Of a stretch of 64,000 nucleotides of DNA, positions 3,903 through 30,689 are shown piece after piece; position 1 is the stretch's first letter; every line of letters begins with the position of its first letter. The stretch comes from Moraxella caprae DSM 19149. Its GTDB lineage: Bacteria; Pseudomonadota; Gammaproteobacteria; Pseudomonadales; Moraxellaceae. A program made the position numbers and the translations under genes. The stretch covers positions 1-64,000 of the forward strand of contig NZ_AUGF01000010.1 in NCBI RefSeq assembly GCF_000426885.1, given 5' to 3'. The notes under the pieces are model-generated. The model saw only the letters and a list, made by a program, of their open reading frames with translations. It was not told the origin of the DNA and searched no databases.

Positions 3903-4751
3903 TTACAGACCACGAGCACGGCGAACTTCGTCGGCGGTAATGCCTTCATAGTTAACCACGTTGCCTTCACGATCAACTATGTTACCTAGGTCGTCCACGT
4001 TTAGCTCTTCACGCTGAATGGTTTCCAAAATGGTCTCGGTGCGAGTGCCAGTGGTCTTGCCTAGCGTTACTTCTTCGGTAACAAAGGTGTCTTTGCTCAC
4101 ATTAGCACGCTCTGCTTCTAGCTCAACGCTTACGGTGGCAACCCCAGCATCATCACCGATACGACGGTCAGTTGGGCGGTTTACGGCAGTACGCTCGATA
4201 TGGGCGTGCTCTTCTTGTAGCTCAACTTCAACACGTTGCTCCTCGCTTACCACACGTTTACCAATACTTGCCACGCCAGAGACGATACGGTCTTTATTCA
4301 CAGACAGACGCTCTTCGAGCAACTCTAGAGTGTTGGGTGCGGTGTAGTGGTTTTCGGTCAGCTCAACACGGCTCTCGGCAGGCAGTGTCTCGGCAGCGAA
4401 AAACTCACGGTCTTTGGCATATTGTTCTTGGTAGTTATAGACATAATCACGGTCGTAGGCTTCCATAACTTCTGCTTGGTCTTTGGTTAGGCTATCAAAG
4501 TACACATCATCGCCAACAATGCGAGATAGACCCGCTGGGATAAGCACTTCTTTTGAGCTGAACCAACCGCCTACATCAACGATAAGATAACGCACACGTC
4601 CTGTTTCTACTTCTACAAGGGCATCTTCTACTTTACCGATTTTCTCTTCGCCAAGGCCATAAGCGGTTTTCCCTGCTGGGTTGTAGTAGTCTGCACCCAA
4701 TACTTCACGCTCGGTGGCTTCAATGTCTTGTAAACGAACTAAACGGCTCAT
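3903..4751 (-). CDS. PRC-barrel and DUF2382 domain protein
   Basis: A 282-residue protein. The N-terminal 100 residues form a PRC-barrel-like domain (KIGKVEDALVEVETGRVRYLIVDVGGWF). A linker leads to a DUF2382 domain from about residue 140, with the paired motifs LELLEERLSVNKDRIVSG and ANVSKDTFVTEEVTLGK. This architecture is common in stress-associated bacterial proteins of unknown biochemical role. The start has a good ribosome-binding region (AGGAGA) just upstream. It lies upstream of the shorter DUF2382 gene on the same strand, but a terminator separates them. Confidence 0.88.
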   Translation of the reverse strand: MSRLVRLQDIEATEREVLGADYYNPAGKTAYGLGEEKIGKVEDALVEVETGRVRYLIVDVGGWFSSKEVLIPAGLSRIVGDDVYFDSLTKDQAEVMEAYDRDYVYNYQEQYAKDREFFAAETLPAESRVELTENHYTAPNTLELLEERLSVNKDRIVSGVASIGKRVVSEEQRVEVELQEEHAHIERTAVNRPTDRRIGDDAGVATVSVELEAERANVSKDTFVTEEVTLGKTTGTRTETILETIQREELNVDDLGNIVDREGNVVNYEGITADEVRRARGL

Positions 4752-5087
4752 ATGTTTCTCCTAAGTGATATTAATAAATGCCTTATGGCAACTTACAAGT
4801 GCTTCATGTGCTTGACTTGATGGGTGTATTGTAGGGATGTTTTGACATGAAAAATAGGATAAGTTGGTAAAAAATAGGGGTTTTTCACGTGTGTTTGGTT
4901 CGCCAAATGTAAGACTTGGTAACTTTATGTAAACTGTAAAAAATTGTGTTGTCTTGTGTTATGGCTGGGTAATTTTTCATTAAATGGTCATTCAATTTTC
5001 ATAAAAAAAATGGTAGATTATTTTTTAAATTATCTTAATATAGATGAAAATTAACATAAATTATTGATTTTTATAAAAATAAAATAA
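4752..5087. other. Intergenic region, no gene seen
   Basis: A+T-rich spacer of about 335 bases between the divergent PRC-barrel gene and a palindrome-ended repeat. It presumably holds the minus-strand promoter of the PRC-barrel gene, but no clear -35/-10 pair stands out. Confidence 0.4.
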
Positions 5088-5219
5088 TTAGGGCGTGCCT
5101 GCCTTTGGTATTTGCAATGAAAAGTGAGAAAATTAGCCATTTTTCATGCAAAAATGGATTAAGGTGTTAAATTTTCATCTTGCTTTGTAAAAATGTTATT
5201 AATGGCAGGCACGCCCTAA
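5088..5219. repeat. Palindrome-ended repeat (TAGGGCGTG family), short 132-bp copy
   Basis: Perfect 16-bp terminal inverted repeats TTAGGGCGTGCCTGCC and GGCAGGCACGCCCTAA. The interior is in reverse orientation relative to the other long copies: ATTTGCAATGAAAA and TTTTTCATGCAAAAATGG are reverse complements of their blocks. It lies just upstream of rbfA. Confidence 0.88.
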
Positions 5220-5339
5220 TCATATCAATAAAAATACCGATGATGAGTGCATTGACATTAAAAATCGCCAAATTCCCAAAAATCGGCTATACTAACCCCA
5301 TCAATAACCACCAAAAACCAAACAACAAGAGAGAAAACC

Positions 5340-5753
5340 ATGAGCCAACGCTTACAACGCCTAGCCGACCAGATTCAGCGTACCTTGTCGGTGCTTATCC
5401 GTGATGAGATTAACGACCCACGCCTGACGGGATTTGTTACCATTTCTAGCGTAAAAGTTAGCCCCGATTTGGGTTATGCTGATGTTTATGTCACCATTTT
5501 GGAGCCGTCCAAAAACGGCGATACGGACGGTGGCATGAACATTGATGCTCACCGTGAGAGCCTGCAAGTGTTAAAAAACGCATCAGGCTTTTTGCGTACC
5601 GAGCTGTCCGCCACCATGAAAACCCGCACCACGCCACGCCTACGTTTTCATTATGATGAAGTTACCGCTCACGGCAACCACATGATGAATCTGGTGAATG
5701 AAGCCATGAAAAAAACGGGCGAGAGCAGTACCAATGACGTGGATAACAGCTAA
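5340..5753 (+). CDS. rbfA: 30S ribosome-binding factor A
   Basis: A 137-residue KH-like protein that binds immature 30S subunits near the 5' helix of 16S rRNA and is needed for maturation and cold adaptation. The family signature is clear: RLADQIQRTLSVLIRDEINDP at the N-terminus and VKVSPDLGYADVYVTIL. The stop overlaps the truB start by one base (TAATG), so the two are translationally coupled. The usual nusA-infB partners are not upstream; a repeat and a stress gene are there instead. Confidence 0.95.
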   Translation: MSQRLQRLADQIQRTLSVLIRDEINDPRLTGFVTISSVKVSPDLGYADVYVTILEPSKNGDTDGGMNIDAHRESLQVLKNASGFLRTELSATMKTRTTPRLRFHYDEVTAHGNHMMNLVNEAMKKTGESSTNDVDNS

Positions 5754-6676
5754 TGGCAAAAAAGATTGTCTCTGGGGTGTTACTCTTAGATAAGCCAAGC
5801 GGTATCAGTTCGCATTCGGCTCTTGCCCAAGCCAAACGCCTGTTTATGTCATCAGATTTTGACAGCAAAAAAGCAGGTCATACAGGCACGCTTGACCCCA
5901 TGGCGACAGGGCTTTTGCCGATTTGTTTAGGGGATGCGACCAAATTTAGTTCTTTTGGGCTAGACGCCGATAAGGGCTACACCGCCATTATCAAACTTGG
6001 CGAGCAGACCGACACAGGCGACAAAGAAGGGCAAATCATCGCCCAAAAAAATGTGCCAACCTTTGACGAGCAGGGGCTTGATGAATTGGCTTGCGATTTA
6101 TTGGGCGAACAACAACAAACCCCGCCCATGTACTCCGCCCTAAAAAAAGACGGCAAAAAACTCTACGAATACGCCCGAGATGGCATTGAGATAGAGCGAG
6201 CTCCACGCCCCATTGTCATTCATCATTTGGCTTTAAATAAATTAAGCAATGATGAAATCGCCCTTGATGTCATCTGCTCCAAAGGCACTTATGTGCGAGT
6301 GCTGGGCGAGACGGTAGCCGAGCGTCTTGGCACGGTGGGGCATTTGACCGCTTTGCACCGCACCAGTACGGGCGGATTTGACGTGGCAGATGCCATCAGT
6401 CTTGATGATTTGGCGGATTTGTCATTTGATGAGCGATTTGGCAAGCTATTACCCGTTGATGTATTGCTTAATCATTTACCTATTGTTAAACTCACCACAG
6501 ACGAAACGGCACGCATTAAAATGGGGCAACGGCTAAATATCAAAGACCGCCTTGATGATGTAAGCTTTACTGATGATACCGCACAAATTCGGCTATATCA
6601 TGATGACGACTTTTTAGGGCTTGGGCAAGTGGCGATGAGTGGGCGACTGCAACCTGTCAAAGTGGTGCAGGGCTGA
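5753..6676 (+). CDS. truB: tRNA pseudouridine(55) synthase
   Basis: A 307-residue enzyme that converts U55 to pseudouridine in the T-loop of tRNAs. The catalytic motif KAGHTGTLDPMATGLLPICLG contains the catalytic Asp in GTLDP. LDKPSGISSHSAL and the SKGTYVRVLGE motif are also present. It is coupled to rbfA by a one-base overlap, the common rbfA-truB arrangement. The C-terminal part is the usual PUA-like region but is weakly conserved here. Confidence 0.96.
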   Translation: MAKKIVSGVLLLDKPSGISSHSALAQAKRLFMSSDFDSKKAGHTGTLDPMATGLLPICLGDATKFSSFGLDADKGYTAIIKLGEQTDTGDKEGQIIAQKNVPTFDEQGLDELACDLLGEQQQTPPMYSALKKDGKKLYEYARDGIEIERAPRPIVIHHLALNKLSNDEIALDVICSKGTYVRVLGETVAERLGTVGHLTALHRTSTGGFDVADAISLDDLADLSFDERFGKLLPVDVLLNHLPIVKLTTDETARIKMGQRLNIKDRLDDVSFTDDTAQIRLYHDDDFLGLGQVAMSGRLQPVKVVQG

Positions 6677-6820
6677 TTTGTGGCGTTTTTGTAATGGATA
6701 AAGATTTTTACTTGCTTAAATGACAAAAGCTGTTACAATTAACTTGCTTTGTGATTTGGCAATATGCCCTATCAACACGCCCTATCATAAAGTGTGTTTT
6801 TAACTTTTAAGGAACGTATG

Positions 6821-7447
6821 ATGAAAAAACTACTTTTAGCTACCCTATTGGCAAGCACTTCAACATTGGCAATGGCTCAAATCGGTACTGACGGTCTGTA
6901 TGTACAGGGTAATGTTGGCGTATCAAAACTAGAAGCCAAAGTAGATGGCGAAAAACTCAAAGACAACGGCGCTGGTTATACTGTTGCAGTTGGTAAAGAC
7001 ATGGGGGCGGTACGTTATCAAGCAGATTACACCAACTTTGGTAAAATCAAAGAAAATGGCTCAGAAGGCGAGCGTGGCACTGCTAGCTATGCAGAGTGGA
7101 AAGGTACGATGAAAGCACAGTCATTGGGTCTATCTGCCATTTATGATTTTAACACCACGGCAGGGCTAACCCCTTATGCAGGCGTGCGTGTCGGCATTAA
7201 TCAGCTAAAAGCTGATTACCATGATGTATCTACTGCAATATCAGCAACGGGTCAGTTGACAGATATCACTGATAATTCATCAGTGAAAAAAACCAAAGTA
7301 GGTGCAGGTGTGCTTGCAGGTGTGCAATATGCCTTTAACCCACAAATGGCATTAGATGTGGGCGTAGAATACAACCACTTAGGCAAAGTTGATGATACAA
7401 AAATGAATCAATACGGTGCCAAAGTCGGTCTGCGTTATAATTTCTAA
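6821..7447 (+). CDS. Outer-membrane beta-barrel protein
   Basis: A 208-residue exported protein with a clear signal peptide, MKKLLLATLLASTSTLAMA, cleaved before QIG. Alternating hydrophobic strands follow, including AGYTVAVGKDMGAVRYQADYT and a C-terminal VGLRYNF ending in aromatic Phe, as outer-membrane barrels do. It fits the 8-strand opacity/OmpA-like porin class. I prefer the ATG at 6821, seven bases after AGGA; the adjacent ATG at 6818 is possible. A related but distinct barrel is at 52324-52878. Function is unknown; adhesin or serum-resistance roles are only guesses. Confidence 0.82.
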   Translation: MKKLLLATLLASTSTLAMAQIGTDGLYVQGNVGVSKLEAKVDGEKLKDNGAGYTVAVGKDMGAVRYQADYTNFGKIKENGSEGERGTASYAEWKGTMKAQSLGLSAIYDFNTTAGLTPYAGVRVGINQLKADYHDVSTAISATGQLTDITDNSSVKKTKVGAGVLAGVQYAFNPQMALDVGVEYNHLGKVDDTKMNQYGAKVGLRYNF

Positions 7448-7534
7448 TCTGTTTAAGATTGGCAAAATCCCTTGTTCTCCACGCAGGGGATTTTGATTTT
7501 TAGGGTGTGTCCTAATGCTTTTTTAAAATTTTTA

Positions 7535-7543
7535 TGCTATAAT
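7535..7543 (+). promoter_or_regulatory. Extended -10 promoter of rpsO
   Basis: TGCTATAAT, a consensus extended -10 element, lies about 100 bases before the rpsO start. No good -35 hexamer is seen, which is tolerable for an extended -10 promoter. Confidence 0.7.
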
Positions 7544-7552
7544 GGCAAAATT

Positions 7553-7607
7553 GCCCTATCTATGGGGATAGGGCTTAGGCAAACCTTAGCAATGCAATGT
7601 TTGCCTG
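7553..7607 (+). promoter_or_regulatory. Structured rpsO leader
   Basis: Two hairpins can form in the transcribed leader: GCCCTATC / GGATAGGGC, then AGGCAAAC / GTTTGCCT. Many rpsO leaders bind S15 for feedback control, so this is a candidate autoregulatory site. The family class is not determined. Confidence 0.5.
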
Positions 7608-7641
7608 TATGTATCCGCATTGCGTATTTTAAGGATTAGTT

Positions 7642-7908
7642 ATGCTAACCAACCAACAACGTTTCGATATCATCGCCAAATTCAAACGTGGCGAAAACGA
7701 CACTGGCAGCCCAGAAGTGCAAGTGGCTCTATTGACCGCTCGTATCAACGACCTACAAGACCACTTCAAAGCCCACAAAGCTGACCATCACAGTCGCCGT
7801 GGTCTTATCCGTATGGTAAACCAACGCCGTAAATTGCTAGACTACCTAAAAGGCAAAGATCTAGACCGCTACACCGCTCTTATCGGTGAGCTTGGACTAC
7901 GCCGTTAA
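7642..7908 (+). CDS. rpsO: 30S ribosomal protein S15
   Basis: An 88-residue primary 16S rRNA-binding protein, the standard length. The S15 signature from [19 protein letters not shown]-like residues ([18 protein letters not shown]) and [12 protein letters not shown] is obvious. AAGGA lies eight bases before the ATG. It has its own extended -10 promoter, a structured leader and an intrinsic terminator. It precedes pnp, as in most gammaproteobacteria. Confidence 0.97.
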
Positions 7909-7966: not shown

Positions 7967-8055
7967 TTGTTTTAAGTTTATAAATTGTTGATTAAGGGTG
8001 AGATTTAGAACTCTAAGAGATATTTTTTGTATTTTTAAATGAAATTAGTGGGACA

Positions 8056-8080
8056 TAGGGCGTGTTCAACACGCCCCTAC
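8056..8080. repeat. Collapsed TAGGGCGTG palindrome (ends only)
   Basis: TAGGGCGTGTTCAACACGCCC followed by CTAC: the left and right ends of the repeat family abut with no interior. This is what precise internal deletion or the minimal unit of the family would look like. It lies in the rpsO-pnp spacer. Confidence 0.7.
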
Positions 8081-8194
8081 AAAATCTGTGATTTTATGAT
8101 AAAAATGTAAGGTTAAAAATACCATTATTAAAAACATCTCTTAGGGCTTTAAATCATCTTATCAATGAAAAACCCAATCATGTAAGGAAAACCT

Positions 8195-10285
8195 ATGTTT
8201 AATATCATTCGTCAAGAATTTCAATATGGCAATCAGCAAGTTGTCCTAGAAACAGGGCGTGTCGCTCGCCAAGCCAACAGCGTGCTTGTGCATATGGGCG
8301 ATGTGTCGGTACTGGTGGCGGTTGTGGTGCGTCCCGAAGCTGTGGCAGGGCAAAACTTTTTCCCACTCACCGTAAACTACCAAGAAAAAATGTACGCTTC
8401 GGGTAAAATCCCAGGGGGCTATGGCAAGCGTGAAGGTCGTGCGTCAGAATTTGAAACTTTGACTTCTCGTCTGATTGACCGTCCAATCCGTCCGCTATTC
8501 CCAGAAGGGTATTTTAACGAAATCCAAGTAACGGCAACGGTTATCTCATCGGGCAAAACCCAAGATGCCGACATTGCAGCGATGATTGGTGCGTCTGCGG
8601 CGTTGGCAATCTCCCCTGCCCCATTTAGCGGCCCTATCGGAGCAGCTCGTGTGGGCTTTATCGGTAATGAATATATCCTAAATCCAAGCCTTGCCCAGAT
8701 GAAAGACAGCTCGCTTGACCTAGTGGTGGCCGGTACCAAATCTGCCGTGCTGATGGTAGAATCCGAAGCGGACGAACTCTCCGAAGACCAAATGCTCGGT
8801 GCGGTGCTGTACGGACACGCCCAACAGCAGATTGTCATTGATAACATCAATGCCTTTGCCCAAGCTGTTGGCAATGCCAAAGCCGAATTTGTCGCCCCTA
8901 CGATTAACGAAGAGCTAAACAATCAGCTTAAAGAGCAGTTCACCGCCAAGGTGAGCGAGGCGTACACCATCACTGTTAAGCAAGATCGCTATGCACGTCT
9001 AGACGAACTAAAAGATGAAGCATTGGCTCTAGCAGGCGATGAGACAGCAGAAGACTATGCCGACAAAGTCGCTCAAATCAAAGAGCTGTTTGAAACCCTA
9101 AAATACCGCACCGTGCGTGATAATATCCTATCAGGCAAGCCCCGTATTGATGGACGTGATTTGGAGACCGTGCGAGCACTCGATATCCAAGTGGGCGTGT
9201 TGCCTTATACGCATGGTTCTGCCCTGTTTACCCGTGGCGAGACCCAAGCTCTTGTAACCACCACGCTAGGCACTAGCCGTGATGTGAACTTGGTGGATAC
9301 GCTGTCAGGCACCAAGCAAGACCACTTTATGCTACATTATAATTTCCCACATTATTCGGTGGGCGAGACAGGTCGTGAAGGTGGCCCAAAACGCCGTGAA
9401 ATCGGGCATGGTCGTCTGGCTCGCCGTGGCGTGCAAGCGGTATTGCCTAAGGCGGAGCGTTTCCCTTATACCATTCGTGTGGTGTCGGACATTACCGAGT
9501 CTAATGGTTCAAGCTCTATGGCGAGCGTGTGCGGTGCGTCGTTGTCGCTTATGGATGCAGGCGTGCCACTAAAAGCCCCTGTGGCAGGTATCGCGATGGG
9601 TCTCGTTAAAGAAGGCGAGAGATTCGCGGTATTGTCAGACATTCTAGGTGATGAAGACCATTTGGGCGACATGGACTTTAAAGTGGCAGGTTCGGTCAAT
9701 GGTATCACCGCCCTACAAATGGATATTAAGATTGAAGGCATTACCGCCGACATCATGGAGCAAGCTCTAAAACAAGCGCATGCAGGGCGTATCCACATTC
9801 TAAATGCCATGAACGAAGTGATCGCCACGTCTCGCACCGAGATTAACGCTCATGCTCCAAACTATGCCACCATTGAGATTAACCCTGAAAAAATCCGTGA
9901 TGTGATTGGTAAAGGCGGTGCAACCATTCGTGCCTTGACCGAAGAGACAGGGGCGACTGTGGACATTGACGACAACGGTACAATTCGTATCTTTGGCGAA
10001 TCTAAAGCATCTACCCGTGCCGCCATTGCCAAAATCGAAGCCATCACCGCCGAAGTGGAAGTGGGTACGGTCTATACAGGGACGGTGGCTCGCATTGTGG
10101 AGTTTGGGGCGTTTGTTACCATTTTACCGGGTACGGACGGCTTGGTGCATATCAGCCAAATCTCTGATGAGCGTGTTGAGAATGTAACCGACCACCTAAA
10201 AGAAGGTCAAACTGTTAAAGTTCAAGTCCAAGACATCGACAATCGTGGACGCATCAAGCTGACGATGAAAGGCATTGAGCAGTAA
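8195..10285 (+). CDS. pnp: Polyribonucleotide nucleotidyltransferase (PNPase)
   Basis: A 696-residue 3'-5' phosphorolytic exoribonuclease, the core of RNA decay and a degradosome partner of RNase E. It has two RNase PH domains, a KH domain ([20 protein letters not shown], about residue 554) and a C-terminal S1 domain ([18 protein letters not shown]). Length is normal for the family. AAGGA before the ATG supports the start. A strong terminator follows directly, after which the base composition changes sharply. Confidence 0.98.
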
Positions 10286-10300
10286 TTGCTTGACTGGTGT

Positions 10301-10327
10301 AAAACCGCTCCAAATGGGGCGGTTTTT
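10301..10327 (+). terminator. Intrinsic terminator of pnp
   Basis: AAAACCGCTCC, loop AAAT, GGGGCGGTTTTT: 10-11 bp stem with a T-run, 15 bases after the pnp stop. It insulates the downstream reverse-transcriptase island. Confidence 0.92.
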
Positions 10328-10417
10328 GTAAATGAACTCTCTTGGTCAGAAAAAAATATAAGACTTTTATTAATGATGAATGCATAGGGTGTTCTTAAGT
10401 AATAATCGGAGTTTACA

Positions 10418-11647
10418 GTGTTGGATCAATCAATTAATCTTGACAGCTTAAAGTTTGTATTAAATGATTATGAGAAAAACTTCTTATTTAAGGACTATTT
10501 TCAGCATGGTGAAGATGAGATATTATTGGAACTAATCAATGATTATAGAACAAATACACCAATAAGAGCGCCAATTAAAGGAAGTTTAAAGGGAAAATCT
10601 GTTTATAGTTACTATAACCTGCGAGAATATCTATTTCAAAAAAGATTTATAACTTCTTTTAAATCCATCAATAAAATATCTCAACAAAATCGCAACGAGA
10701 TCGTTTTATCTATTATGGCATTAATACAAGAGCACAAGCCTTATAATATTCTAAGATTGGATATTAAGAGTTTTTATGAATCGATAGATAGAACTAATTT
10801 ATTAGATAAAATTAAAAGGGATAAAATTTACTCTTTTGACACGGTAAAGATTTTAGAAAGTTTTTTTGAGTGTTTTGAAAGAGAGGGAATTTATGGGTTG
10901 CCAAGAGGTTTGCCCATGAGTGCTATTTTGGCAGAATATTATATGAGAAATTTTGACAAAGCATGTAAGAGAATGGATGGTGTATTTTTTTATGCTAGAT
11001 TTGTTGATGATATTATTATTTTTACTACAAATCAAGACTTGAAAGAATGTGATTTGCAAGATAAATTGCCAGAAGGCTTACAATTTAATACTAAAAAAAG
11101 CAAAATTATTAAATTTTATATTAATAATAATGCTACACCCATAAAAGAATATTTTTCATATTTAGGTTACCAGTTTTATATTGATTATACAAAAAAAGAG
11201 GTTAATTTTTATGTAGATATTGCACCAGAAAAAATCAAGAAAATAAAGACAAGAATAGTTAAGTCTTTTTTAGATTACAATAGAAATAAAAATTTTATTT
11301 TATTGTTAAAGAGAATAAAATTTTTAACAAATAATTATTTTATTTATAATAAAAATCGCGATACCAAAATCAAAAGTGGTATTTACTACAATTATAAATA
11401 TATAACCATTGAAAAAATAGATGAAGGTAGATTAAGCCTTTATGACTTAGATAAATTTTTACAATCCATCATTTTTAGCATAAAATTACAAAAGGATATT
11501 CTTGGCTGTGAGCATTTGTTATCTAATGATAAAAAAGTGCAGCTATCCAAGTATAAGTTTATTAACGGTTTTAAGGATAAAAAATTTCAAAAATTCTCTC
11601 GAAATCCAAAAGAATTTAAGCAAATCAATCGTTGTTGGAGTTATTAA
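10418..11647 (+). CDS. drt3a: Antiviral reverse transcriptase Drt3a (DRT3 system)
   Basis: A 409-residue reverse transcriptase. The polymerase core is visible: motif A ILRLDIKSFYESID (Asp115), motif B YGLPRGLPMSAILAEYY (about 159-175), motif C FYARFVDDIIIF (catalytic FVDD at 195-198), and LQFNTKKSKI as motif D. No maturase, endonuclease or integrase domain follows, which argues against a group II intron. The size, and a second and larger RT directly downstream, match Drt3a (UG3-type) of defence-associated reverse transcriptase type 3. From memory of recent reports, Drt3a copies an ACACAC template in a partner RNA to make poly(GT). The start is GTG, with CGGAG six bases upstream. It is far more A+T-rich than the flanking genes, suggesting transfer. 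Subtype assignment rests on architecture, not on a search. Confidence 0.86.
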   Translation: MLDQSINLDSLKFVLNDYEKNFLFKDYFQHGEDEILLELINDYRTNTPIRAPIKGSLKGKSVYSYYNLREYLFQKRFITSFKSINKISQQNRNEIVLSIMALIQEHKPYNILRLDIKSFYESIDRTNLLDKIKRDKIYSFDTVKILESFFECFEREGIYGLPRGLPMSAILAEYYMRNFDKACKRMDGVFFYARFVDDIIIFTTNQDLKECDLQDKLPEGLQFNTKKSKIIKFYINNNATPIKEYFSYLGYQFYIDYTKKEVNFYVDIAPEKIKKIKTRIVKSFLDYNRNKNFILLLKRIKFLTNNYFIYNKNRDTKIKSGIYYNYKYITIEKIDEGRLSLYDLDKFLQSIIFSIKLQKDILGCEHLLSNDKKVQLSKYKFINGFKDKKFQKFSRNPKEFKQINRCWSY

Positions 11648-11648
11648 A

Positions 11649-13670
11649 ATGAGTAAATCAAAAAAGAGTAAAATATTACTTTCTTCGGATGATTTTTATA
11701 GAGTTCTAATTACAGATACTCAGCCTTATCATATGCCTATTATTTTTAATAATTATGGTTTGTATAATGCGATAGATAAAAGCAAAAAATCAATTGATTT
11801 TTATGAGATTTTTATTAAAGACTTGGGATTGACCAATGTAAATTCTAGTGATTTTTTAAATAATAAATATACCATACCATTTGAGTATCAAATTTCAAAA
11901 AATATACATTCTTTTCGCTCGTTAAAATTAATTCATCCACTTGATCAACTTAGATTTGTTGATTTTTATAGAAAATTTTATACTATCATTTTATATAATT
12001 GTGGTCGTAGTGAGTTTTCCTTGCGTTATCCAAGCAAGGTAAACAGTGCTGTTTTTCGATTAAAAAATGATGATATTTATCAAAAATTAATGAGTGAGGA
12101 TGATTTGGATGAATGTCAATCAAATGAGCATAAAGTAGATATTGAAAATAACAATCAAGAATTTGCATCATCATTTTTTTCATATAAAAAGTTTGAGTTT
12201 AATTACAAATTTTATGACTCTGTTGATTTTTTGCGACTGGAGAAAAAATTTGTTTATTTAGTTATGCTAGATGTTGCTCATTGTTTTGATTCTATTTATA
12301 CACATAGCATCTCTTGGGCAATTAAAGGCAAGAAATATATAAAAGATAACCTAAATAAACCAAAAGAAAATTCTTTTGAGGATGGTTTTGACAATTTAAT
12401 GCAATCTATAAATTACAATGAGACAAATGGTATTGTGATAGGTGCTGAGTTTTCTAGAATATTTGCCGAATTAATTTTTCAAAGAATTGACTTTGAAATC
12501 CAAAAAGAACTAGAGAAAAAGTATCAAATAAAACATAATGAGCATTATGCCATAAGAAGATATGTTGATGATTATTGCATATTTTTCAAAGAAAAGGAGG
12601 ATGAAGATAAAATTTTGGAGGTAATTTCTAATAAATTAAAGTCTTATAATTTATCTCTAAATATGGCTAAGACAAAGTATTTCCAAAGACCATTTATTAC
12701 TCAAAGAAGTCGTAATATTGCAGAGATTCGCCGTTTTTTATTATCTAAAATGAGTGAAATTATTTATTTAAAAAATGATGAAAATGGTAAGTGTTATTTT
12801 TTAGATGGAAATAAATTAAAGAATCCACAGCATAGAGCCAATGAATTTATTAGAGAAATAAAAAGTTATTGGAATATCAATGATGATTTGAACTCTGGGT
12901 TTTCTGGGTATGTCATAAAAGCATTTTTATCCCAAATTTTGAAATTTATACGCTATAGCGATAGTATTTTAAATGATGAGAAAAATAACTGCAATCCTGT
13001 TATAAATTTTCTCTTATTTATGTTTGAGGTATCATTATATTGTTTTACAATAGATCCAAATGTCAGTAATTCAATTGAGTTTTCAAAAATTGTTATTTTT
13101 ATTGATAGATTGATTGGAAACAATCAACTTTTATCTAATTATCAAGAGCGATTTAGGTATACCGCTAGAAATTCATTGTTAGAACTTTTGGATAATGAGT
13201 TGTCCAATCAAAAAGCAACATTGATAGAAAGATTGAATATTTTATTGACTTACTGTGAAATATCAGAAAGTGAAATTGAGAATGATAATGTCAAGAAATA
13301 TTTATTTGGTATAAATGGTGATGAATATAATTATTTTAGTCTCATTGTTGCATTATTTATATTTAAAAACAAAGATTACTATCATTTGCCTAAAAATGAA
13401 GTTGTTAATAAGATTAAGGATAAGATTGCCGAAAATCCGATAAAAGCTCATTCTGAAACTTTTCATTTATATCTTGATTGTATGAGTTGTCCATATCTAA
13501 ACGACAATGAAAAAATAGAAATAACAAAGATATTTTTACCAACATTAAATTGCAACGACAATGCACAAAAAATTGTAAGTAAGTTAAAGAAATACAGCTG
13601 GTTTGTTGATTGGAAGAATATTGATTTTTTAAGATATTTAAAGAAAAAGCAATTGAGAAATGCTTACTGA
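11649..13670 (+). CDS. drt3b: Antiviral reverse transcriptase Drt3b (DRT3 system)
   Basis: A 673-residue second reverse transcriptase. Motif A is VMLDVAHCFDSIYTHS (Asp208), the motif B region is GIVIGAEFSRIFAELIF, and motif C is RRYVDDYCIFF with catalytic YVDD at 305-308. SLNMAKTKYFQRPF follows as motif D. About 200 residues precede the polymerase core and about 300 helical, charged residues follow it; I recognise no other domain there. It starts one base after the drt3a stop, at an ATG with GGAG eight bases upstream. A longer in-frame GTG start at 11502 would overlap drt3a and is rejected. The pairing fits Drt3b (UG8-type), reported (from memory) to make the complementary poly(AC) strand without a nucleic-acid template. 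Its 3' end carries the promoter for the RNA gene downstream. Confidence 0.86.
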   Translation: MSKSKKSKILLSSDDFYRVLITDTQPYHMPIIFNNYGLYNAIDKSKKSIDFYEIFIKDLGLTNVNSSDFLNNKYTIPFEYQISKNIHSFRSLKLIHPLDQLRFVDFYRKFYTIILYNCGRSEFSLRYPSKVNSAVFRLKNDDIYQKLMSEDDLDECQSNEHKVDIENNNQEFASSFFSYKKFEFNYKFYDSVDFLRLEKKFVYLVMLDVAHCFDSIYTHSISWAIKGKKYIKDNLNKPKENSFEDGFDNLMQSINYNETNGIVIGAEFSRIFAELIFQRIDFEIQKELEKKYQIKHNEHYAIRRYVDDYCIFFKEKEDEDKILEVISNKLKSYNLSLNMAKTKYFQRPFITQRSRNIAEIRRFLLSKMSEIIYLKNDENGKCYFLDGNKLKNPQHRANEFIREIKSYWNINDDLNSGFSGYVIKAFLSQILKFIRYSDSILNDEKNNCNPVINFLLFMFEVSLYCFTIDPNVSNSIEFSKIVIFIDRLIGNNQLLSNYQERFRYTARNSLLELLDNELSNQKATLIERLNILLTYCEISESEIENDNVKKYLFGINGDEYNYFSLIVALFIFKNKDYYHLPKNEVVNKIKDKIAENPIKAHSETFHLYLDCMSCPYLNDNEKIEITKIFLPTLNCNDNAQKIVSKLKKYSWFVDWKNIDFLRYLKKKQLRNAY

Positions 13671-13681
13671 TATGCTATAAT
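13653..13681 (+). promoter_or_regulatory. Promoter of the DRT3 non-coding RNA, inside the drt3b 3' end
   Basis: TTGAGA at 13653-13658, a 17-base spacer, then TATAAT at 13676-13681 preceded by TGC (extended -10). This is a near-consensus sigma-70 promoter overlapping the last codons and stop of drt3b. The predicted transcription start is about 13685-13688, exactly where the RNA helix begins. Confidence 0.85.
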
Positions 13682-13684
13682 ACC

Positions 13685-13829
13685 AATGTCTTATCTACTG
13701 ATATTCTATCTCTTAGCGATACTAATGGTGCTTTCAGAGCTCATAGTGTCACTAAAAGCAATACTTGTTTAATTTCAAGAGTGCTATGCACACACACCAT
13801 AATATAGTAGGTAAGACATTTTATTTTTT
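13685..13829 (+). ncRNA. DRT3-associated structured RNA with CACACACAC template tract
   Basis: Untranslated segment directly after drt3b. AATGTCTTATCTACT (13685-13699) pairs with AGTAGGTAAGACATT (13806-13820) as 15 continuous pairs including one G-U. After one bulged base, ATATT (13701-13705) pairs with AATAT (13801-13805). Inside, CATAG and CACT (13742-13753, with a TGT bulge) pair with AGTGCTATG (13780-13788). CACACACAC (13789-13797) sits unpaired between the inner helix and the closing helix. A U-rich run (TTTTATTTTTT) follows the closing helix and can terminate transcription. The position, size and ACACAC tract match the partner RNA expected for DRT3, in which the tract templates poly(GT) synthesis. 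Ends are predicted, not measured. Confidence 0.82.
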
Positions 13830-13861
13830 AATTATTGATAAATTGTATTTTATACAAAAAA

Positions 13862-14470
13862 TTAATTTGTAATATTTCTCAAATTCCCTCTTGTCTGACT
13901 CTCCAACCTATCATAAAAATAATCCGTCAAATAAACCCTATCTTTTTGATAAAATCCCTTTAATACCGCCTTTCTTTTAAAATGATAAATCAGTCCATTT
14001 ACCCACGCATATTCTTGCCTGATTTGATGATTATATTCATCAAATCTATCAAGATCACTTCCCAATATCGCCAAATCAATATCCAATAAATAATCCAAAT
14101 CTGCCTTATCATCGCCCGTTAAAGGATTGATATGGTCTTTGGTGGCAAGAATATAACGCTCAGTAATACCAATATCTGTATCGGATAATATGCCTTGTAA
14201 TTCATCTTTCATCATGACCGAACTGTCATATTCATTGGTGGGGCTTTTGGGATTATAAATTACGTCATGATAAAAAAGGGCAATGGCAACCAAATCGGGA
14301 CGATATAAATTATCTTTTATTTCATCAAACCACATAAAACATTCAGATAAATGGGTGAGATTATGATAATGACGGTGGGGCTGTTGGTAGTGGGTGATGA
14401 GATTGTCAAAAAGGGTTTGATGACCGTGAGAAAATATAAACTGCCAATGAGAATTTAGATAATTTATCAT
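13862..14470 (-). CDS. HD-domain phosphohydrolase-like protein
   Basis: A 202-residue predicted metal-dependent protein of the HD superfamily (the COG4339 type, unknown substrate). RHYHNLTHL (about 33-41) and ALFYHDVIY with His68-Asp69 supply the metal ligands. IDLAILG near residue 132 gives a further acidic position. I chose the ATG at 14470; GTG 14479 and TTG 14482 are in frame upstream. The gene is A+T-rich but less so than the DRT3 island. It ends about 33 bases beyond the RNA gene, convergent with it. Any link to the defence island is unproven. Confidence 0.72.
   Translation of the reverse strand: MINYLNSHWQFIFSHGHQTLFDNLITHYQQPHRHYHNLTHLSECFMWFDEIKDNLYRPDLVAIALFYHDVIYNPKSPTNEYDSSVMMKDELQGILSDTDIGITERYILATKDHINPLTGDDKADLDYLLDIDLAILGSDLDRFDEYNHQIRQEYAWVNGLIYHFKRKAVLKGFYQKDRVYLTDYFYDRLESQTRGNLRNITN

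Positions 14471-29291: not shown

Positions 29292-30689
<1,398 letters not shown>

What the first reader, a model, noticed from the sequence alone, without database searches (positions are those of the whole stretch)
13685..13829. Structured RNA gene beside drt3b with an unpaired CACACACAC tract
Seen: a 15-pair helix (13685-13699 with 13806-13820) plus five more pairs closes a domain of about 100 bases. A second helix (13742-13753 with 13780-13788) ends exactly where CACACACAC (13789-13797) begins, so the tract is held single-stranded between two helices. Established (from memory of recent DRT3 work): Drt3a copies an ACACAC tract in a partner RNA to give poly(GT), and Drt3b makes the poly(AC) strand without a nucleic-acid template. 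Inferred: this is the template RNA. Such RNAs are rarely annotated and this one sits in a region that would normally be left blank.
Basis: partly seen in the sequence, partly recalled or inferred. Interest (0 to 1): 0.95.

Follow-up and report, generated by a model that had tools for sequence, protein, structure and literature searches.

The report
Template RNA of a DRT3 defence system
Just after a pair of bacterial anti-phage enzymes lies the small folded RNA that one of them most likely copies into repetitive DNA; the system is of a known kind, but its second enzyme has an unusual residue at the spot thought to choose adenine.

Summary
The finding is largely right. Window 10418-13670 encodes an intact Drt3a/Drt3b pair, and the DNA just after drt3b encodes a DRT3-type noncoding RNA. 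Its 20-pair closing helix is predicted with confidence, and the equivalent helix covaries in relatives. ACACAC or CACACA lies within 300 nt after drt3b, same strand, in 105 of 110 distinct full-length DRT3 loci (10.8 expected by shuffling). Published E. coli work shows that Drt3a copies this tract into poly(dTdG), while Drt3b makes poly(dCdA) without a nucleic-acid template.

A short hairpin (13781-13784 with 13788-13791) probably takes the first CAC of the tract, leaving ACACAC 13792-13797 as template.

Added: (1) a near-consensus promoter (TTGAGA-17-TGcTATAAT, 13653-13681) overlaps the last drt3b codons, and its register is conserved outside Bacteroidota; (2) a same-genus genome lacks drt3a, drt3b and the RNA at this site; (3) the Drt3b residue equivalent to E22, the proposed adenine gate, is His28; in the other 109 it is Glu (79) or Asp (30).

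It is a DRT3 member by homology. Its products are untested, and His28 leaves the poly(dCdA) product uncertain.

The parts
10330..13870 (.). DRT3 cassette (drt3a, drt3b, RNA), inserted after the pnp terminator; replaced by 21 bp in a same-genus genome
   Evidence: BLASTN against L146: window 8130-10329 matches 4188-6387 (93.7%), window 13871-15200 matches 6409-7728 (91.8%); GC 0.20-0.29 inside for the 500-bp bins from 10500 to 13999, against 0.42-0.52 in the bins 8000-10499
10418..11647 (+). drt3a, 409 aa, RNA-templated reverse transcriptase (UG3)
   Evidence: NF041747 375.8 bits, cut-off 200; PADLOC Drt3a 1e-109; PDB 9z6y_A E 4.4e-43; D115, D197 and D198 each present in 105 of 105 aligned Drt3a
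11649..13670 (+). drt3b, 673 aa, protein-primed and protein-templated reverse transcriptase (UG8)
   Evidence: NF041748 628 bits, cut-off 350; PADLOC Drt3b 5.1e-183; PDB 9z6y_H 4.1e-91 and 26cz_A 8.9e-89
11730..11732 (+). Codon CAT of Drt3b His28, equivalent to E22 (adenine gate) of EcoDRT3b
   Evidence: Column holds E 79, D 30, H 1 of 110; numbering checked on L102, whose Drt3b is the EcoDRT3b of PDB 26cz
13653..13658 (+). -35 element TTGAGA of the RNA promoter, inside the Leu-Arg codons of the drt3b C-terminus
   Evidence: 11 of 12 consensus matches with extended -10, best of 27 sites in 10280-13950; TTG codon conserved in 54 of 59 Leu codons
13676..13681 (+). -10 element TATAAT, 17-nt spacer, TG upstream
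   Evidence: TAnnnT in the same register in 32 of 63 non-Bacteroidota loci
13688..13829 (+). DRT3 noncoding RNA; the ends are inferred (G13688 lies 7 nt after the -10; T-rich run 13821-13829 follows the closing helix)
   Evidence: Inference; transcript not measured
13685..13705 (+). 5' arm of the closing helix P1
   Evidence: Pairs with 13801-13820; homologous helix covaries and own arms pair better than swapped arms
13801..13820 (+). 3' arm of the closing helix P1
13713..13755 (+). Hairpin inside P1 (18 pairs in three stretches plus a short stem)
   Evidence: Mean pair probability 0.93-0.94; conservation not tested
13764..13779 (+). Small hairpin CUUG/CAAG
   Evidence: Mean pair probability 0.78; conservation not tested
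13781..13791 (+). Hairpin GUGC-UAU-GCAC directly 5' of the template (at the place of stem-loop 4)
   Evidence: P about 0.78; -2.3 kcal/mol on its own; hairpins flush with ACACAC are commoner than in shuffles
13792..13797 (+). ACACAC template, 3' part of the CACACACAC tract 13789-13797
   Evidence: Unpaired with P 0.93 or more; ACACAC conserved

Best explanation
The feature is the template RNA of a DRT3 anti-phage system. It is probably transcribed from its own sigma-70-type promoter that overlaps the last codons of drt3b (shown as sequence, inferred as function). P1 closes the RNA; a hairpin directly 5' of ACACAC 13792-13797 marks the template's 5' edge. By homology, Drt3a copies ACACAC over and over into poly(dTdG), resetting before it enters the hairpin. 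Drt3b, primed on Tyr673, adds C and A in turn from its own active site, and the strands anneal to dsDNA that stops phage growth when RecBCD is blocked. Sequence, fold, conservation, the gene pair and the host's recBC and greA were computed here; the chemistry and the defence are taken from the E. coli work and are inferred for this copy. The step least sure here is the adenine choice, because E22 is His28.
For: Gene identity. Tract: 105 of 110 distinct full-length loci; 106 if 420 nt are searched. P1: own arms -27.2 kcal/mol on average against -18.36 +/- 0.44 for 10,000 permutations of the 3' arms over 74 loci, none as good; the window's own arm ranks first of 74. In a subgroup of 16 loci without the window, 94.9% of cells pair, 10 of 11 pairs change on both sides, slid versions reach 48.3% at most. 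Promoter. Drt3a precedes drt3b in 107 of 110 loci; in the other three the drt3b match begins 4, 389 and 769 bases from the contig end. Cassette limits. Measured relatives: L102 Drt3b is identical to PDB 26cz over 287 aligned residues, L101 is 99.5% identical to 9z6y over 188, and both have the tract. L101 and the window share TCAAGAG-N(4-5)-ATGCACACAC around the template. recB, recC and greA relatives in the genome. Literature: PMC13174585 (abstract, passages, sections 6, 7, 10); PMC13314766 (passages).
Against: No transcript, binding or product data for this copy. A covariance model from the 16-locus subgroup does not find the RNA in the whole window with default filters; with filters off in 3.7 kb it is the best hit but weak (12.2 bits, E 0.029), and the model finds 8 of 90 other loci at E up to 1. 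Taken singly many loci have no clear P1: z beyond 2 in 61 of 106, beyond 3 in 35. The permutation does not remove shared base composition of the two arms. The template hairpin of the window is weak (-2.3 kcal/mol). 5 of 110 loci lack the tract within 300 nt. Number of promoter-like sites in the region is at chance (27 against 28.5). His28 departs from the E/D gate.
Confidence: 0.94

Rival explanations
1. The structure is only the 3' untranslated region and transcription end of the drt3 mRNA, protecting or terminating it; the AC tract has no template role.
For: P1 is followed by a T-rich run (13821-13829), so it could end the operon transcript (sequence).
Against: A terminator needs no ACACAC tract, yet the tract is there in 105 of 110 loci. 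A promoter register overlapping drt3b directly before P1 is conserved. P1 spans about 100 nt of loop and the terminator scan finds none in 10280-13950. In E. coli, mutating the tract abolishes defence and poly(dTdG) (PMC13174585, passages).
Confidence: 0.04
2. A degenerate DRT3 system: the RNA is still recognisable but Drt3b His28 has lost the adenine gate, so no dsDNA is made and the cassette is inactive.
For: E22A and E22K have almost no activity in E. coli DRT3b (PMC13174585 section 7); no other of 110 homologues has His there.
Against: Both reading frames are intact, and all other gate, catalytic and priming residues are kept. At columns conserved in 85% or more of homologues Drt3b departs at 2, against a median of 4. 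Promoter, P1 and tract are intact. His could still accept a hydrogen bond from the adenine amino group (inference).
Confidence: 0.2
3. Chance: a structured stretch beside drt3b that happens to hold a CA tract.
For: The 9-mer and 6-mer counts in the window are at chance.
Against: Fold z -4.42, tract conservation, covariation, promoter register.
Confidence: 0.01

Closest known systems
EcoDRT3 (PMC13174585; Drt3b = PDB 26cz; here locus L102, an E. coli system)
   Same: Gene order drt3a-drt3b-RNA on one strand; ACACAC after drt3b (position 132 after the last sense codon in L102, 122 for the longer tract in the window); closing helix; catalytic, priming (Y666 = Y673), R241 (= R270) and R71 (= R90) residues.
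   Different: Drt3b about 35% identical; E22 is His28 here; the RNA differs in sequence.
E. coli DRT3 of PDB 9z6y/9z6z (reported as Deng et al. 2026 in PMC13314766; here close to loci L099-L101)
   Same: Same two proteins; around the template L101 and the window share TCAAGAG-N(4-5)-ATGCACACAC.
   Different: P1 sequence differs; Glu at the gate in L099-L101 (only the window departs from E/D). Deng et al. itself was not available and not read.
DRT9 and DRT10 (class 2 UG RTs with template RNA)
   Same: An RT copies a short template in a partner RNA into tandem-repeat DNA (PMC13174585, passages; PMC12632851, abstract start in a search listing).
   Different: No second, protein-templated RT; other template sequences. 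Not tested here beyond family searches.

Membership tests
DRT3 defence system | Drt3a (UG3) reverse transcriptase | tested here: met
   NF041747 375.8 bits over cut-off 200; 9z6y_A
DRT3 defence system | Drt3b (UG8) reverse transcriptase directly downstream of Drt3a | tested here: met
   NF041748 628 bits over cut-off 350; drt3a stop ends at 11647, drt3b starts at 11649
DRT3 defence system | Noncoding RNA downstream of drt3b with an ACACAC template in a loop | tested here: met
   By sequence and predicted fold: tract 13789-13797, ACACAC 13792-13797 unpaired; same layout in relatives. RNA itself not observed
DRT3 defence system | Similarity of the RNA to a covariance model of DRT3 RNAs | tested here: inconclusive
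   Own model R1 of one subgroup: not found in 64 kb with default filters, weak best hit with filters off (12.2 bits, E 0.029, 3.7 kb). The published model was not available; Rfam has no hit
DRT3 defence system | Catalytic aspartates of both RTs | tested here: met
   Drt3a D115, D197, D198 (105 of 105); Drt3b D208, D307 (110 of 110)
Drt3b protein-templated poly(dCdA) synthesis | Priming tyrosine Y666 | tested here: met
   Y673; 110 of 110
Drt3b protein-templated poly(dCdA) synthesis | R241 (cytosine switch) and R71 | tested here: met
   R270 (110 of 110) and R90 (107 of 110)
Drt3b protein-templated poly(dCdA) synthesis | E22 (adenine gate), Asp tolerated | tested here: not met
   His28; the other 109 are Glu 79 and Asp 30. 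This lowers the claim about the Drt3b product, not the homology-based membership in DRT3
[quoted passage not shown] phage defence | not testable with these tools
   Needs an experiment
DRT3 defence system | Host RecBCD and GreA (context reported for E. coli) | tested here: met
   recB-like 494 bits (below curated cut-off 696), recC-like 227.8 bits (below 582.9), adjacent 704-aa ORF taken as recD by its place and ATPase motif (recalled, no family search); greA 189.2 bits over cut-off 139

The most novel reading that the evidence does not exclude
This Drt3b is a natural variant of the protein template: with histidine in place of Glu/Asp at the adenine gate it may choose nucleotides differently (a relaxed or changed repeat), while its partner RNA still dictates poly(dTdG). 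It would be a natural test of whether single residues set the sequence that a protein-templated polymerase writes.
Probability: 0.25. Interest if true: 0.8.

Novelty: new member of a known kind. Interest (0 to 1): 0.5.

Why it matters
It adds a divergent, unannotated DRT3 RNA outside the studied E. coli systems and fixes its likely limits, template and promoter, so a clone with the whole unit (10330-13870) can be planned. The conserved overlap of the RNA promoter with the drt3b C-terminal codons was not mentioned in the main text of the preprint read here (term search for 'promoter' and 'transcription start'), and a library search for Drt3b + ncRNA + promoter gave that preprint and one review. 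It gives a way to find the start of such RNAs in other genomes. His28 offers a natural change at one of the residues proposed to act as a protein template.

Tried and rejected
The long 9-nt tract as a longer template: set aside, since its first CAC probably belongs to the hairpin.

MAFFT alignment of 68 diverse RNAs gave no RNAalifold structure (energy 0.0 with three settings); with 19 chosen by shared P1 motifs the window's P1 was misregistered. Hence the permutation test and a 16-row alignment without the window (A2). A2 is a chosen subgroup: from the 19 I left out the window, L095, L100 and L120 and added L108.

Covariance model R1: weak for the window, 8 of 90 other loci at E up to 1. First scans with the single protein found no relatives in genome contigs or viral contigs; the alignment A1 did. 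Only the best 80 of 478 genome relatives were kept, so the survey is not complete.

Rows dropped: of 130 loci and the window, L001 and L005 (copies of the window) were left out; 114 Drt3b were full length and 110 distinct. Not counted: L007, L015, L107, L115, L117, L121, L122 (partial or broken Drt3b) and L123-L130 (distant RTs). Six of the partial ones could be read at the gate and have E (L007, L015, L122) or D (L107, L115, L117). The 74-locus set is <70% Drt3b identity with the tract 90 nt or more from the last sense codon; 10 loci with a nearer tract were left out. A first promoter scan over 74 loci gave 25 with p up to 0.05, against 13 in a control stretch upstream.

Full report
Observation. 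The stretch 13671-13835 folds at -41.9 kcal/mol against -26.25 +/- 3.54 for 200 shuffles. The second helix is not supported: its pairs have probability 0.0 and forcing them costs 11.4 kcal/mol. The best fold has hairpins 13713-13755, 13764-13779 and 13781-13791; the last takes the first CAC of CACACACAC and leaves ACACAC 13792-13797 unpaired. The tract alone is at chance level in the window.

The genes. 10418-11647 is Drt3a and 11649-13670 is Drt3b by NCBIfam equivalogs over their cut-offs, by PADLOC and by solved E. coli structures (9z6y, 26cz). Drt3a has its catalytic aspartates (105 of 105 aligned). The cassette is AT-rich (GC 0.20-0.29 in the 500-bp bins from 10500 to 13999). In a genome of the same genus (L146) the sequence matches up to window 10329 and resumes at 13871, with 21 bp between, so the acquired unit is drt3a, drt3b and the RNA. 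Two other genus members with the same downstream gene, L147 and L148, were also compared: L148 matches both flanks with about 320 bp of other sequence between; for L147 only the downstream side matched. DRT3b was found in 7 of 348 genomes of the family, among genus members only here, in 2 of 369 of the class and 2 of 398 of the phylum, this genome included. From the relatives (an Acinetobacter and a Psychrobacter record carry the same Drt3b as two of the family's genomes) the family is Moraxellaceae; the genus is probably Moraxella (inference).

Comparison set. From family, class and phylum searches, plasmids, GTDB genomes (best 80 of 478) and viral contigs (32), 114 full-length Drt3b were obtained, 110 of them distinct, the window included. 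All 110 have at least 250 nt downstream.

Tract. ACACAC or CACACA occurs within 300 nt on the coding strand in 105 of 110, against 10.8 expected and 6 on the other strand. Of the five exceptions L059 has CACACAC at 369; L040, L057, L067 and L080 have none in 420 nt (shorter CA stretches are visible in L067 and L080). In 10 of 106 loci the tract lies within 71 nt of the last sense codon, a different layout.

P1. Searching each locus for its best helix between the two sides of the tract gives z over 2 in 61 of 106 and over 3 in 35. Over 74 loci under 70% Drt3b identity, own arms average -27.2 kcal/mol; 10,000 permutations of 3' arms average -18.36 +/- 0.44, none as good; the own arm is best of 74 in 19 loci and in the top three in 36; the window's is best. 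Base composition shared by the two arms may add to this. The cleaner test is a 16-locus subgroup (window not included): 11 pairs, 94.9% of cells paired, 10 pairs with changes on both sides, 63 such cells against 19.1 in shuffles, and 36.6-48.3% paired when slid by 1 to 3 columns. A covariance model of this subgroup does not find the window's RNA in 64 kb with default filters and gives it only 12.2 bits (E 0.029, best hit) in 3.7 kb without filters: the window's RNA is a distant member of the layout, not of that subgroup. A hairpin flush with ACACAC below -3 kcal/mol occurs in 53% of 74 loci against 13% of shuffles; the window's is -2.3. In L101, whose Drt3b is 99.5% identical to 9z6y over 188 residues, the template context TCAAGAG-N(5)-ATGCACACAC parallels TCAAGAG-N(4)-ATGCACACAC in the window.

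Promoter. TTGAGA-17-TATAAT with extended TG at 13653-13681 is the best of 27 promoter-like sites in 10280-13950, whose number is at chance (28.5 expected). Its place is informative: -35 lies in codons Leu-Arg of the C-terminal tail that carries the priming tyrosine, and G13688, 7 nt after the -10, lies in P1. Among 63 non-Bacteroidota loci (74-locus set) the codon at this place is Leu in 59 and TTG in 54, 9.9 expected from the genes' own Leu usage (binomial p 2.7e-36, treating loci as independent); at 15 other conserved Leu columns TTG is at most 26%. TAnnnT begins 8 nt after the Tyr codon in 32 of 63; the next best offset has 13. In 11 Bacteroidota loci the numbers are 1 and 0, as expected if their RNA polymerase reads other signals (recalled). 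I read this as a conserved promoter for the RNA that overlaps the drt3b coding end; no transcript data were seen. The preprint's main text has 'promoter' twice, both about pBAD, and 'transcription start' not at all.

Gate residue. PMC13174585 section 7 names E22 as adenine gate, R241 as cytosine switch, R71 as stacking residue and Y666 as primer. L102 Drt3b is identical to the 26cz chain over 287 residues and gives the same numbering. In the window these are His28, Arg270, Arg90 and Tyr673. The E22 column holds E 79, D 30, H 1 of 110, and E or D in six partial genes. The paper reports E22D partly active, E22A and E22K almost inactive; 'histidine' does not occur in its main text. The window's Drt3b is otherwise conservative (2 departures at columns conserved in 85% or more, median 4), which argues against a decaying gene. 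An assembly error cannot be excluded.

Host context. RecB- and RecC-like proteins (both below curated cut-offs), a likely RecD (by place and motif only) and GreA are in the genome, so the E. coli model (RecBCD keeps the product low, GreA needed; PMC13174585) could apply.

Mechanism and novelty. Most likely this RNA is the Drt3a template. That is known for E. coli DRT3; the window adds a divergent member. New here, as far as go, are the promoter register and the His28 variant. Papers: PMC13174585 (abstract, passages, sections 6, 7, 10), PMC13314766 (passages), PMC13213688 and PMC12632851 (search listing only); Deng et al. 2026 was not read.

Noticed in passing
window 11730-11732 (Drt3b His28): The adenine-gate position of Drt3b is His, against Glu (79) or Asp (30) in the 109 other distinct full-length homologues.
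   Followed up: partly
window 13653-13681 and the same register in other DRT3 loci: A sigma-70-type promoter overlaps the last codons of drt3b; the Leu codon is TTG in 54 of 59 non-Bacteroidota loci.
   Followed up: yes
L010, L016, L017, L088, L089, L091, L113, L114, L118, L119: In 10 of 106 DRT3 loci the CA tract lies 28-71 nt after the last sense codon instead of 100 nt or more; several have GGCTGT-N-GCAGCC before it. Possibly a second class of DRT3 RNA.
   Followed up: no
L040, L057 (Snodgrassella), L067, L080: Full-length Drt3b but no ACACAC within 420 nt downstream: degenerate, displaced or different template.
   Followed up: no
window 10330-13870 against L146 6388-6408: Clean presence/absence of the DRT3 cassette directly after the pnp terminator; a related genus member (L148) has about 320 bp of other sequence there.
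   Followed up: partly
L015, L107, L115, L117: Broken Drt3b genes (reading frame split over two ORFs) on a plasmid and in viral contigs.
   Followed up: no
window 29979-29987, - strand: A second CACACACAC, not near an RT gene that I looked at; expected by chance.
   Followed up: no
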